From the NCBI RefSeq assembly GCF_025996515.1, contig NZ_BLRH01000034.1, positions 868,001-932,000 on the forward strand: 64,000 nucleotides of DNA. The letters are read 5' to 3'. The stretch comes from Rhizohabitans arisaemae. Lineage in GTDB: Bacteria > Actinomycetota > Actinomycetes > Streptosporangiales > Streptosporangiaceae. Below are positions 12,886-15,945 of this stretch, piece after piece. A program made the position numbers and the translations under genes. Each line of letters starts with the position of its first letter. Positions within the stretch are counted from its first letter, which is position 1. Below the pieces are notes generated by a model that was not told the DNA's origin, ran no database searches, and worked only from the letters and a program-made list of their open reading frames with translations.

Positions 12886-12925
12886 GGATAAATCATGTTG
12901 TGTGCACCCGAAAGCCGGGCCCACC

Positions 12926-13558
12926 ATGTCCGATGTGTACCTTCTTGCGTTTATCGGCGCCTGCATCCTGGTGGCGATGGTCCCCGGGGTCAGCACCGCG
13001 ATCATCCTGCGCCAGACCCTTCGCTCCGGACGGGGCTCGGGCTTCGCGGCCATCCTCGGCAACGAGACCGGCGTCCTGCTGTGGGCGCTGGCCGCGGCCT
13101 TCGGCCTCTCCGCGCTCCTGCTCGCCTCCCAGACCGCCTACGACGCCATGCGGATCGCCGGCGCGCTCGTCCTGGCGTTCATGGGCGCGCAGTCCCTGTG
13201 GCAGGCCCGGACCGCGAGGACCGCGGTCGAGGTGGAGGTGGCGGTGCCCACCGCGGACGGTGCGCGCAAGTCCTACCTCCTCGGCCTCGGCACCTGCCTG
13301 GCCAACCCCAAGGCCGCCGTCTTCGCGCTGTCGTTCCTGCCGCAGTTCGTGCCGCCCGGGCAGAACGTCGTCGCGACGCTGGTGCTGCTGTCGGTGATCT
13401 GGGTCCTGGTGGACACGTTGTGGTACGCCCTGTTCGTCTGGGCGATCGCCAAGGCGAAGGCGATCCTCGGGAAGCCGGCCGTCCGGCGCAGGCTGGAGCG
13501 GATCTCCGGCGTGGTCCTCATCGGCCTCGGCGTGCGGCTGATCCTGGAAGCCCGGTGA
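12926..13558 (+). CDS. LysE/RhtB family amino acid exporter
   Basis: Inner-membrane protein of 210 aa with about six hydrophobic segments. The family signature near the N-terminus is AMVPGVSTAIILRQTLRSGR; GLGTCLANPKAAVFALSFLP is the second conserved block. Members export amino acids or homoserine-type compounds driven by proton motive force; the substrate is not readable. ATG 12926 is used although no clear ribosome site precedes it. The next gene starts 61 bases downstream on the same strand and may be co-transcribed. Confidence 0.87.
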   Translation: MSDVYLLAFIGACILVAMVPGVSTAIILRQTLRSGRGSGFAAILGNETGVLLWALAAAFGLSALLLASQTAYDAMRIAGALVLAFMGAQSLWQARTARTAVEVEVAVPTADGARKSYLLGLGTCLANPKAAVFALSFLPQFVPPGQNVVATLVLLSVIWVLVDTLWYALFVWAIAKAKAILGKPAVRRRLERISGVVLIGLGVRLILEAR

Positions 13559-13619: not shown

Positions 13620-14396
13620 TTGACGACACCCTCGAACGACAGGGCGGCCCGGCTCCGGGAACTGCACCGGCCCGGCTCCCCGCTGCTGCTGCCCAACGTC
13701 TGGGACGCCGCGAGCGCGGCGACCGTCGAGGCGGCCGGGTTCCCCGCGCTCGCCACGGCCAGCGCCGCGATCTCCGCCATGCTCGGGTACCCGGACCACG
13801 AGGGCGCTCCGGCCGAGGACATGCTCGCCGCGGCCGGACGGGTCGTCCGCGCGGCTCGGGTGCCGGTGACCGTCGACGCCGAGGCGGGGTACGGCCTTGC
13901 GGCCGCCGAACTCGTCGGACACCTGGCCGCCATCGGCGCGGCCGGATGCAACCTGGAGGACTCCGACCATCGGAGCGGCGGCCTGGCCGCCCTCGACGAC
14001 CAGGCGAGACGGATCGCCGAGGTACGCGCCGCGGCCGTCGGCGCCGGAGTCGACCTGGTGATCAACGCACGGGTCGACGTCTTCCTGGACGCGAAGGAGG
14101 AGACCCCCGGCCTGGTGGCCGAAGCGGTCGAGCGGGGACGGCGCTACCTGGAGGCCGGAGCCGACTGCGTCTACCCGATCATGGCCGTCTCCGAGGACGT
14201 GATCTCCACGCTCGTCGCCGGGCTGCCAGGCCCGGTCAACGTGCTCGCACTCCCCAACGGCCCGTCCCTGTCCCGCCTGGCCGAGCTGGGCGTCGCCCGC
14301 GTCTCCTACGGCCCCCAGCCGTACCGGCGGGCGTTGGGCACCCTGGAGGCCATGGCCGCTCGGATCGCCGCCCACGAAGATCCCTTCGCCTCCTGA
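13620..14396 (+). CDS. Isocitrate lyase/PEP mutase superfamily enzyme
   Basis: Cytosolic TIM-barrel enzyme of 258 aa. Superfamily blocks are present: LPNVWDAASA near residue 25, PVTVDAEAGYG near residue 85 (Mg-binding Asp/Glu), GCNLEDSD near 115 and INARVDVFL near 145. Reactions in the family break or rearrange C-C or P-C bonds next to a carboxylate (2-methylisocitrate lyase, oxaloacetate decarboxylase, PEP mutase). This short form without the KKCGH motif is not a true isocitrate lyase. TTG 13620 is the start because CTAGGAGGA lies at ideal distance. It may form a pair with the LysE exporter upstream. Confidence 0.85.
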   Translation: MTTPSNDRAARLRELHRPGSPLLLPNVWDAASAATVEAAGFPALATASAAISAMLGYPDHEGAPAEDMLAAAGRVVRAARVPVTVDAEAGYGLAAAELVGHLAAIGAAGCNLEDSDHRSGGLAALDDQARRIAEVRAAAVGAGVDLVINARVDVFLDAKEETPGLVAEAVERGRRYLEAGADCVYPIMAVSEDVISTLVAGLPGPVNVLALPNGPSLSRLAELGVARVSYGPQPYRRALGTLEAMAARIAAHEDPFAS

Positions 14397-14565: not shown

Positions 14566-15795
14566 TCACGCGGGGACCGGGGTGTCCCACAGGTCGAGGC
14601 GGTGGTCGCCGATCAGGTCGCCGATCCTGGCCAGTACCTCGCCGGCGGGGCGGGCCTCCAGGCGGCGGCCGTCGCGCAGACGCAGGGCGACCTGGTCGCC
14701 GGCGGCCTCCTTGGGCCCGATCACCGCCTGGTACGGGACAAGCCTGGCATTCCTGATGCGCGCCCCCAGGCTGCCGTGCTCGGGCCCGGAAAGCTCGGCC
14801 CGCAGCCCCCGGTCGGCGCATCGCCGTACAAACTCCGCAGCCTGCGGCACCTCCGCATCGGAGATGGGGAGTGCCACCAGCTGACGGGGGGCGAGCCAGG
14901 CCGGGAACGCGCCCCCGTACAACTCGATCAGGTGCGCGACGGCCCGTTCCAGGCTGCCGACGACGCTGCGGTGGACCATCACCGGCCGATGCCGGGCGCC
15001 GTCGGCGCCGACGTACTCGAGGCCGAACCGTTCGGGCTGGTGGAAGTCGATCTGCACGGTCGACAGGGTGGCCTCCCGCCCGGCGCCGTCGGCGATCTGC
15101 ACATCGATCTTGGGTCCGTAGAAGGCCGCCTCTCCTTCGGCGGCCTCGTACTCAAGGCCCGAGCGGTCCAGGACGTCGGTCAACATGGCTGCGGCCCGCC
15201 GCCACATCTCCGGCGCGGCCACGTACTTCCCGCCCGGCCCGGGGAGGGAGAGCCGGTAGCGGACCGGCTGGATACCGAGGTCCAGGTAGGCCTGGCGGAT
15301 CAGCGCCAAGGCCCCGACGGCCTCCTCGGCGACCTGGTCCAAGGTGCAGAAGATGTGCGCGTCGTTGAGCTGGATGGCCCGGACCCGGGTCAGCCCGCCG
15401 AGGACGCCGGAGAGCTCGGAGCGGTACATCGCGCCGAGTTCGGCGATCCGCAGCGGCAGTTCCCGGTAGCTGTGCGCGCGAGACCGGTAGATCAGCGCGT
15501 GGTGCGGGCACAGACTCGGCCGCAGGACCACCTGTTCGCCGCCCAGGTCCATCGGGGGGAACATGTCCTCGCTGTAGTGGGACCAGTGCCCGGAGATCTC
15601 GTACAGCTCCCTCTTGCCCAGCACCGGCGAGTAGACGTGCCGGTAACCCGCGCGGCGCTCGGCGTCGCGGATGTACTCCTCCAGGGTGTGCCGCACGATC
15701 GCGCCGTCGGGCAGCCAGTACGGCAGCCCCGCGCCGATCAGCGGGTCGGTGTCGAACAAGCCCAGCTCGCGGCCGAGCCTTCGGTGATCGTGCAT
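14566..15795 (-). CDS. Threonyl-tRNA synthetase, short form without editing domain
   Basis: Class II synthetase of 409 aa containing only the catalytic core (about 1-305) and anticodon-binding domain (about 305-405). The N-terminal TGS and editing domains of full-length ThrRS (about 640 aa) are absent. The catalytic zinc ligands are all present: C96 in LRPSLCPHH, H147 in NDAHIFC and H275 in PVMVHRSVVGS. It should charge tRNA-Thr but cannot clear Ser-tRNA-Thr by itself. It is probably a second, inducible copy, perhaps used in threonine shortage or under a ThrRS inhibitor. ATG 15795 has AGGAG six bases upstream. The upstream leader carries attenuator features. Confidence 0.9.
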   Translation of the reverse strand: MHDHRRLGRELGLFDTDPLIGAGLPYWLPDGAIVRHTLEEYIRDAERRAGYRHVYSPVLGKRELYEISGHWSHYSEDMFPPMDLGGEQVVLRPSLCPHHALIYRSRAHSYRELPLRIAELGAMYRSELSGVLGGLTRVRAIQLNDAHIFCTLDQVAEEAVGALALIRQAYLDLGIQPVRYRLSLPGPGGKYVAAPEMWRRAAAMLTDVLDRSGLEYEAAEGEAAFYGPKIDVQIADGAGREATLSTVQIDFHQPERFGLEYVGADGARHRPVMVHRSVVGSLERAVAHLIELYGGAFPAWLAPRQLVALPISDAEVPQAAEFVRRCADRGLRAELSGPEHGSLGARIRNARLVPYQAVIGPKEAAGDQVALRLRDGRRLEARPAGEVLARIGDLIGDHRLDLWDTPVPA

Positions 15796-15837
15796 CGTGG
15801 TCTCCTCGCGGAAGGTGAGGCGAGTGACCGATGCGCC

Positions 15838-15867
15838 GAAGCCCCGGGGCACCCGCCCCGGGGCTTC
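15838..15867 (-). terminator. Attenuator hairpin upstream of the short ThrRS gene
   Basis: GAAGCCCCGGGGC and GCCCCGGGGCTTC form a perfect, GC-rich 13-bp stem with a 4-base loop, between the leader peptide stop and the synthetase start. No T-run follows. The leader segment GTCCCGG can pair instead with CCGGGGC of the first arm, so an antiterminator is possible. Confidence 0.75.
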
Positions 15868-15881
15868 GACTACGTCAGCTG

Positions 15882-15932
15882 TCAGCGCGCCGGGACACTC
15901 TCCGGCGTCGTCGTCATGGCGGCGCGCTTCAT
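15882..15932 (-). CDS. Threonine leader peptide (predicted)
   Basis: A 16-codon frame, MKRAAMTTTPESVPAR then stop, with three consecutive ACG threonine codons, 86 bases before the short threonyl-tRNA synthetase gene. The RNA of the leader can fold so that GCGCGCCG at its start pairs with CGGCGCGC at its end. A ribosome paused at the Thr codons would block that stem and free GTCCCGG to pair with the terminator arm. This is the design of amino-acid attenuation. There is no ribosome site; a TAGCGT -10 box seven bases before the ATG suggests a leaderless transcript. GTG 15941 is an alternative start. Confidence 0.72.
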   Translation of the reverse strand: MKRAAMTTTPESVPAR

Positions 15933-15939
15933 GCCGACC

Positions 15940-15945
15940 ACGCTA
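15940..15945 (-). promoter_or_regulatory. -10 box of the leader/ThrRS transcript
   Basis: TAGCGT, seven bases before the leader peptide ATG, overlaps the TAG stop of the methyltransferase gene. The same TAnCGT plus 7-base geometry is seen before the response regulator at 63904. No convincing -35 box. Confidence 0.45.

What the first reader, a model, noticed from the sequence alone, without database searches (positions are those of the whole stretch)
15838..15945. Classical threonine attenuator in front of a second threonyl-tRNA synthetase gene
Seen: a 16-codon leader frame with ACG-ACG-ACG, an RNA stem enclosing those codons (GCGCGCCG with CGGCGCGC), a 13-bp GC-rich terminator between leader and gene, and an alternative pairing GTCCCGG/CCGGGGC that would open the terminator. 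Known: this is the logic of amino-acid attenuation of trp/his/thr leaders. Inference: low charged tRNA-Thr induces the short synthetase. The leader appears leaderless itself, with a -10 box on the stop codon of the gene before. I know of no description of attenuation of a synthetase gene of this type.
Basis: partly seen in the sequence, partly recalled or inferred. Interest (0 to 1): 0.82.

Follow-up and report, generated by a model that had tools for sequence, protein, structure and literature searches.

The report
Threonine-sensing switch before spare ThrRS gene
An RNA switch in front of a spare threonyl-tRNA synthetase gene senses whether ribosomes stall on the threonine codon ACG, and the gene behind it is written almost without that codon, so the cell should still be able to make the enzyme when the tRNA reading ACG runs out of threonine.

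Summary
On the minus strand, leader MKRAAMTTTPESVPAR* (ACG x3), an enclosing stem, a 13-16 bp hairpin without U-tract and a leaderless -10 precede a 409-aa editing-domain-less ThrRS. It is deeply conserved: of 395 actinomycete genomes 62 carry this short ThrRS, and all with intact upstream sequence carry the Thr leader.

Two features appear new. (1) Downstream element A covaries both with the hairpin loop and with the thrS Shine-Dalgarno region, suggesting a translational layer. (2) Leader and gene use opposite Thr codons: the leader almost only ACG, 81 short thrS genes 797 ACC and 3 ACG (flanking genes 33% ACG, ribosomal genes 31%; other amino acids unbiased). Three housekeeping thrS genes bearing such a leader also have 0/69 ACG.

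Best reading: ribosome-mediated attenuation sensing charging of ACG-decoding tRNA-Thr, driving a gene encoded to be translatable during that shortage. All evidence is computational; nothing was tested in cells.

The parts
15940..15945 (-). -10 box TAGCGT, overlapping the upstream TAG stop; leader starts at or near its own ATG (leaderless)
   Evidence: TAnnnT 6-7 nt upstream of the leader ATG in 128 of 133 orthologues; S. lividans thrL start mapped as leaderless (PMC8079986)
15882..15932 (-). leader ORF thrL, MKRAAMTTTPESVPAR*
15906..15914 (-). regulatory codons ACG ACG ACG
   Evidence: ACG at codons 2 and 3 in 133/133 orthologues, codon 1 in 126/133
15920..15927 (-). P1, 5' arm of leader stem (pairs with P2)
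   Evidence: 98-99% of cells paired, nearly invariant, so no covariation information
15902..15907 (-). P1' CGCCGG, second local partner of P2 (CCGGCG)
   Evidence: 99.8% paired, invariant
15885..15896 (-). P2 GTCCCGGCGCGC, pairs with P1/P1' (OFF) or with T5 (antiterminator, ON)
   Evidence: RNA kept although the reading frame shifts in L031, L109, L119
15855..15870 (-). T5, 5' arm of terminator-like hairpin
15835..15850 (-). T3, 3' arm of terminator-like hairpin; no U-tract follows
   Evidence: T5:T3 helices have compensatory changes; terminator scan negative
15850..15857 (-). loop element Lp GGCGGGTG, complementary to A
   Evidence: Loop:A covariation, 20 both-side-changed cells vs 6.3 +- 1.9 shuffled
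15819..15829 (-). element A GGTCACTCGCC, pairs with Lp or with the Shine-Dalgarno region
15799..15809 (-). Shine-Dalgarno region GCGAGGAGACC of thrS, sequestered by A in the predicted OFF state
   Evidence: A:SD duplex -17.8 own vs -14.9 swapped between species, 0 of 200 swaps as low
14566..15795 (-). short (second) threonyl-tRNA synthetase gene, 409 aa, class II core plus anticodon-binding domain, no TGS or editing domain; Thr codons 8 ACC, 0 ACG
   Evidence: TIGR00418 435 bits over cut-off, Pfam tRNA-synt_2b and HGTP_anticodon; codons

Best explanation
A ribosome-mediated attenuator controls the spare ThrRS by sensing how fast ACG codons are read. When the ACG-decoding tRNA-Thr is poorly charged, the leading ribosome stalls on ACG-ACG-ACG, masks P1/P1', and leaves P2 free to capture T5 before T3 is made; the terminator-like hairpin is avoided and its loop element Lp can pair with A, which would otherwise bind the Shine-Dalgarno (SD) region. 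When Thr-tRNA is plentiful the ribosome runs to the stop codon, P2 is covered or re-pairs with P1, T5:T3 forms, and A closes the SD. The gene is nearly free of ACG and poor in Thr, so it should stay translatable in the condition that switches it on. Shown: conservation, covariation of T5:T3, Lp:A and A:SD, stall-dependent P2:T5 in folding calculations, opposite codon use. Inferred: direction of regulation, transcription versus translation level, and that ACG is the codon that starves first.
For: Leader with Thr run in every short thrS having intact upstream sequence except L039; 59/62 short-ThrRS genomes hit by the RNA model at E <= 2.6e-6 directly upstream, of the other three two have truncated contigs and one a divergent TTTP leader. 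P2:T5 probability in 51 sequences 0.83-0.86 with the ribosome at the codon before Thr1, Thr1 or Thr2, 0.49 at Thr3, 0.01 or less beyond, 0.18 with free RNA (0.88). Covariation: OFF structure 12 pairs changed on both sides vs 5.3 shuffled; Loop:A 20 cells vs 6.3; both duplexes better within than between species. Natural frameshifts keep the RNA block and lose the VPAR peptide. Codon partition: short thrS 3 ACG of 800 ACC+ACG vs 1349 of 4084 in flanking genes, Fisher p about 1e-118, other four-fold families unbiased; ribosomal-protein region of the same genome 31% ACG; leader-bearing housekeeping thrS 0/69 vs 75/368 without leader. The genome has tRNA-Thr GGU, UGU and CGU genes.
Against: No U-tract and no consensus terminator. 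P2:T5 is invariant, so covariation neither supports nor rejects it. At equilibrium T5:T3 is far more stable than P2:T5, so the switch must be kinetic; predicted SD accessibility rises only from 0.27 to 0.33 when T5 is held. P2:T5 is also likely for stalls at earlier codons (0.52-0.86). Two housekeeping thrS genes without a Thr leader are also ACG-poor (L180 0/29, L178 1/30), so ACG avoidance is not unique to attenuated genes. Homologous genes are not independent, so p-values overstate. No expression or charging data.
Confidence: 0.72

Rival explanations
1. Purely classical transcription attenuation: the hairpin is a U-poor intrinsic terminator and the A:SD and Loop:A pairings have no regulatory role.
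For: P1:P2, P2:T5, T5:T3 geometry fits trp/his/thr leaders; Nocardia-type orthologues L079 and L108 have 5-6 U after the hairpin.
Against: Loop:A and A:SD covary; in 121 of 133 sequences the longest T run at the hairpin end is 2 or less; terminator scan negative.
Confidence: 0.3
2. Purely translational attenuation: the hairpin does not terminate; the stalled ribosome only changes access to the thrS Shine-Dalgarno region.
For: No U-tract; covarying SD-sequestering arm and competing loop; Actinobacteria have a related precedent in the leuA LEU element, whose base stem involves the SD (PMC1262725).
Against: At equilibrium T5:T3 wins and SD access hardly changes, and P2:T5 would have to last far longer than RNA polymerase transit.
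Confidence: 0.25
3. The spare ThrRS is mainly an antibiotic-stress isoenzyme: WblC/WhiB7 drives the promoter and the leader adds a ThrRS-inhibitor sensor (borrelidin-like drugs starve the ACG codons). This is compatible with the attenuation mechanism and concerns its purpose.
For: S. coelicolor thrS2, alaS2 and trpS are WblC-activated (PMC7157823); a GAAA box sits about 31-36 nt upstream of the -10 in 84 of 133 orthologues; the short enzymes carry Gln at the E. coli L489 position, a borrelidin-resistance site (PMC4389257).
Against: No GAAAWY box in the window; the own housekeeping ThrRS already carries Ala at the G463 position (FYAPK), itself a borrelidin/obafluorin resistance change in E. coli ThrRS (PMC11252418), so a resistant spare is not obviously needed; no drug data.
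Confidence: 0.25
4. ThrRS protein itself represses by binding the leader, as in E. coli thrS autoregulation.
For: The regulated gene is a ThrRS; structured leader near the start codon.
Against: It does not explain the Thr-codon leader ORF conserved with ACG in frame, nor the stall geometry. Operator mimicry was not tested.
Confidence: 0.04

Closest known systems
thrL leader of Streptomyces lividans TK24 (SLIV_19412 / thrS SLIV_19410; PMC8079986)
   Same: Homologous leader (MKR...TTP..VPAR*), leaderless start mapped by RNA-seq, one hairpin without U-tract, before a thrS. A Streptomyces genome with the same leader (one mismatch to the back-translated pattern) has it before a 415-aa short ThrRS with the whole hairpin/A/SD architecture (L147).
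   Different: Described there in a table row and short paragraph; two Thr codons instead of three; no alternative structures, SD pairing, distribution or codon partition reported in the passages read.
Predicted trpS and leuS attenuators of Streptomyces; ilvB, trp and leuA leaders (PMC1262725)
   Same: Leader peptide with cognate codons and alternative hairpins before aminoacyl-tRNA synthetase genes; the LEU element also pairs with the SD.
   Different: That survey states no conserved structures for threonine genes; its trp, ilvB and leuS hairpins have poly-U; in LEU the Leu codon run itself pairs with the SD.
E. coli thrABC leader attenuator
   Same: Thr codon run controlling a terminator through ribosome stalling (established knowledge).
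   Different: Controls biosynthesis, has a U-tract terminator, and uses ACC (eight ACC codons, PMC1183508) rather than ACG.
Anabaena T2 ThrRS (PMC4787780)
   Same: Second ThrRS with impaired editing, induced under stress.
   Different: Zur-regulated zinc response; T2 has a degenerate editing domain, whereas here the domain is absent.
T-box leaders
   Same: tRNA-charging control of synthetase genes.
   Different: No Rfam match at gathering threshold in the window; sensing here is via a translated ORF.

Membership tests
Ribosome-mediated amino-acid attenuator | Short translated leader ORF with a run of codons for the cognate amino acid | tested here: met
   ORF conserved with in-frame Thr run
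Ribosome-mediated amino-acid attenuator | Mutually exclusive pause/antiterminator/terminator helices | tested here: met
   P1:P2, P2:T5, T5:T3 in the window and 97% paired P2:T5 in 51 sequences, though P2:T5 shows no covariation
Ribosome-mediated amino-acid attenuator | Stall at regulatory codons favours antiterminator, passage does not | tested here: met
   folding calculation only; earlier stalls also favour it
Ribosome-mediated amino-acid attenuator | Intrinsic terminator with U-tract | tested here: not met
   no U-tract in the window and in most orthologues; two orthologues (L079, L108) have 5-6 U. Hence: works like an attenuator, not filed as a canonical U-tract one
Ribosome-mediated amino-acid attenuator | Expression responds to starvation for the amino acid | not testable with these tools
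   needs reporter or RNA-seq under Thr limitation
S. lividans thrL family | Homologous leader upstream of thrS | tested here: met
WblC/WhiB7 regulon | GAAAWY box upstream of -35 | tested here: not met
   absent in the window, GAAA box present in 84 of 133 orthologues
T-box riboswitch | Match to T-box covariance model | tested here: not met
   0 Rfam matches at gathering score
E. coli thrS-type autoregulation | Operator mimicking tRNA-Thr and bound by ThrRS | not tested
   binding assay needed

The most novel reading that the evidence does not exclude
An isoacceptor-specific rescue circuit: the leader reports specifically on charging of the ACG-decoding tRNA-Thr (CGU/UGU), and the spare ThrRS gene has been purged of ACG so that it can be translated when exactly that tRNA pool is empty, perhaps because the spare enzyme is specialised for recharging it or because the stress hits that tRNA. 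The RNA integrates this signal at two levels through a three-partner switch (hairpin loop, element A, Shine-Dalgarno).
Probability: 0.25. Interest if true: 0.8.

Novelty: new variant of a known kind. Interest (0 to 1): 0.62.

Why it matters
Selective-charging theory (Elf and Ehrenberg; discussed in PMC1183508) predicts that attenuator leaders use codons whose tRNA loses charging first; by the same logic genes needed in starvation should use codons whose tRNA stays charged. Here one locus shows both sides in extreme form (leader almost only ACG, gene 0.4% ACG), over many genera, and in three housekeeping thrS genes that carry the same kind of leader. That makes the prediction directly testable in Streptomyces, and gives a mechanism for how a WblC-linked, editing-free spare ThrRS could be switched on when threonylation fails.

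Tried and rejected
Rfam scan of the window: no family. A conserved leader peptide as the functional product: rejected for the C-terminus, since L031, L109 and L119 keep the RNA block in another frame. General high-expression codon bias as the cause of ACG avoidance: rejected, since ribosomal-protein and EF-Tu/EF-G genes of the same genome use 31% ACG and other four-fold families in short thrS match the flanking genes. Other genes under the leader: none found; the motif in the own genome occurs once, and strong R1 model matches in 395 genomes lie before short thrS, except an orphan leader (G235) and a long thrS (G242). Zinc (T2-like) control: only the literature was read, no Zur box was sought. 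Borrelidin resistance: undecided, both enzymes carry resistance-like substitutions. The first run of the duplex test contained one placeholder value and was repeated cleanly. The first parse of the G242 long thrS codons was wrong and was replaced.

Full report
Observation. On the minus strand, upstream of a 409-aa second ThrRS (14566-15795), lies a 16-codon leader ORF MKRAAMTTTPESVPAR* (15932-15882) with three ACG codons, an enclosing stem, a 13-16 bp GC hairpin (15870-15835) and an alternative pairing of GTCCCGG with CCGGGGC. The region folds with z = -4.05. The -10 TAGCGT overlaps the stop of the methyltransferase gene before it and is 7 nt from the leader ATG.

Gene. The protein meets the thrS equivalog cut-off and has only the class II core and anticodon-binding domains, without TGS or editing domain. 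The genome also has a full-length ThrRS at 43% identity.

Distribution. The 80 best orthologues in named genomes (Streptomyces, Kitasatospora, Streptacidiphilus, Microbispora, Sphaerisporangium, Nocardia, Saccharopolyspora, Crossiella, Catenulispora and others) nearly all show M[KQ]RA..TTTP[ED]xVPAR. In an evenly drawn sample of 395 actinomycete genomes, 62 have the short ThrRS (55-100% identity, clearly separated from long ThrRS at 47% or less). A covariance model finds the leader directly upstream in 59 of the 62 at E <= 2.6e-6; two others have truncated contigs and one has a divergent TTTP leader. Of the 142 upstream sequences inspected, L039 is the only one with intact upstream sequence and no leader; L010, L133 and L146 are cut by contig ends.

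What is conserved. In 133 leaders ACG is invariant at Thr codons 2 and 3 and 126/133 at codon 1; the block ACGACGACGCCGGAnnnGTCCCGGCGCGCTGA is almost fixed. L031, L109 and L119 keep this RNA block but shift its frame, so the C-terminal VPAR peptide is a by-product of RNA constraint. TAnnnT lies 6-7 nt before the ATG in 128/133, matching the leaderless thrL start mapped in S. lividans.

Structure. On alignment A1 (51 sequences) the hairpin base and the A:SD helix contain compensatory changes (12 pairs changed on both sides versus 5.3 in shuffles). Element A is also complementary to the thrS Shine-Dalgarno region: duplex energies are better within a species than between species for Loop:A (-12.9 versus -11.4) and A:SD (-17.8 versus -14.9), with none of 200 swaps as good, while the control Loop:SD shows no effect. 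P2:T5 is 97% paired but invariant, so it cannot be tested by covariation.

Stall geometry. Folding the RNA made before T3 exists, with a ribosome footprint placed codon by codon, gives mean P2:T5 probability 0.86, 0.84 and 0.83 for ribosomes at the codon before Thr1, at Thr1 and at Thr2, 0.49 at Thr3, 0.01 or less once the ribosome passes to Pro or beyond, and 0.18 for free RNA (one search gives 0.88 for Thr2 with the upstream RNA removed). Stalls further upstream also favour P2:T5 (0.52-0.63), so the calculation shows the boundary at the Thr run rather than exclusivity. The footprint size was assumed. SD accessibility changes little at equilibrium (0.27 to 0.33), so the translational layer, if real, must be kinetic.

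Codon partition. In 81 short thrS genes Thr codons are ACC 797, ACT 15, ACG 3, ACA 2. In 192 flanking genes of the same loci the ACG share is 0.33. Ala, Pro, Ser, Val, Leu, Arg and Gly show nearly the same G-ending share in short thrS and in flanking genes, so the effect is specific to Thr. Ribosomal-protein, EF-Tu and EF-G genes of the window's genome use 31% ACG and the window's genes 29%, so it is not expression bias. Thr content is 2.5% against 6.6%. The three divergent short genes have 14 ACC and 0 ACG. The genome has tRNA-Thr genes with anticodons GGU, UGU and CGU (not all 59 tRNA matches were read).

Housekeeping thrS. Three genomes without a short copy (G242, G355, G378) have a Thr leader (TTTPG...) with a hairpin before the long thrS. 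These three genes have 0/69 ACG; 14 long thrS genes without a leader have 75/368 (Fisher p 9e-7). Caveats: the three are close relatives, and two genes without a leader (L180, L178) are also ACG-poor.

Prior art. S. lividans thrL was listed in 2021 (PMC8079986). A Streptomyces genome with a near-identical leader has it before a 415-aa short ThrRS, so it is the same element. S. coelicolor thrS2 belongs to the WblC regulon together with alaS2 and trpS (PMC7157823); consistently a GAAA box stands about 31-36 nt upstream of the -10 in 84 of 133 orthologues, though not in the window. Classical attenuators before trpS and leuS were predicted in 2005, with threonine genes explicitly negative (PMC1262725). 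I found no description of the Loop:A:SD switch or of the codon partition in the papers searched; that is absence of evidence within an open-access library only.

Conclusion. An attenuator sensing Thr-tRNA at ACG codons is the best explanation (0.72). Whether output is at transcription, translation or both is open. The unexpected part is that the regulated gene has lost the codon its own leader senses.

Noticed in passing
G235:C18:79-214 (L152): Orphan Thr leader (MQRAANTTTPERVPAR*) with hairpin and SD but no short thrS behind it in a genome that lacks the short gene; looks like a recent gene loss.
   Followed up: partly
G242:C55 (L151), G355:C1 (L173/L174), G378:C17 (L156/L175): Thr attenuator leaders in front of the housekeeping long thrS in genomes without the short copy.
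   Followed up: yes
upstream of leader in Streptomyces orthologues, e.g. L147:1455-1460: WblC/WhiB7-type GAAAWY box at fixed distance upstream of the -10; missing in the window.
   Followed up: partly
L002 (own long ThrRS): The housekeeping ThrRS of this genome has FYAPK, i.e. Ala at the position of E. coli Gly463, a change that gives borrelidin and obafluorin resistance in E. coli ThrRS.
   Followed up: no
window 12893-13558 and 13629-14396 (+): LysE-type transporter (below-cut-off match to homoserine/threonine efflux family) and a PEP-mutase-like gene lie next to the short thrS on the opposite strand.
   Followed up: no
L228:165-239 (G000:C34:564366-564438): ARAGORN calls a tRNA with a four-base anticodon (cttc) beside a tRNA-Pro; weak Rfam tRNA score, possibly a degenerate or unusual tRNA.
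   Followed up: no
L189, L190, L191: The most divergent short ThrRS genes contain only 4-5 Thr codons in about 410 (1.0-1.2%), all ACC.
   Followed up: partly
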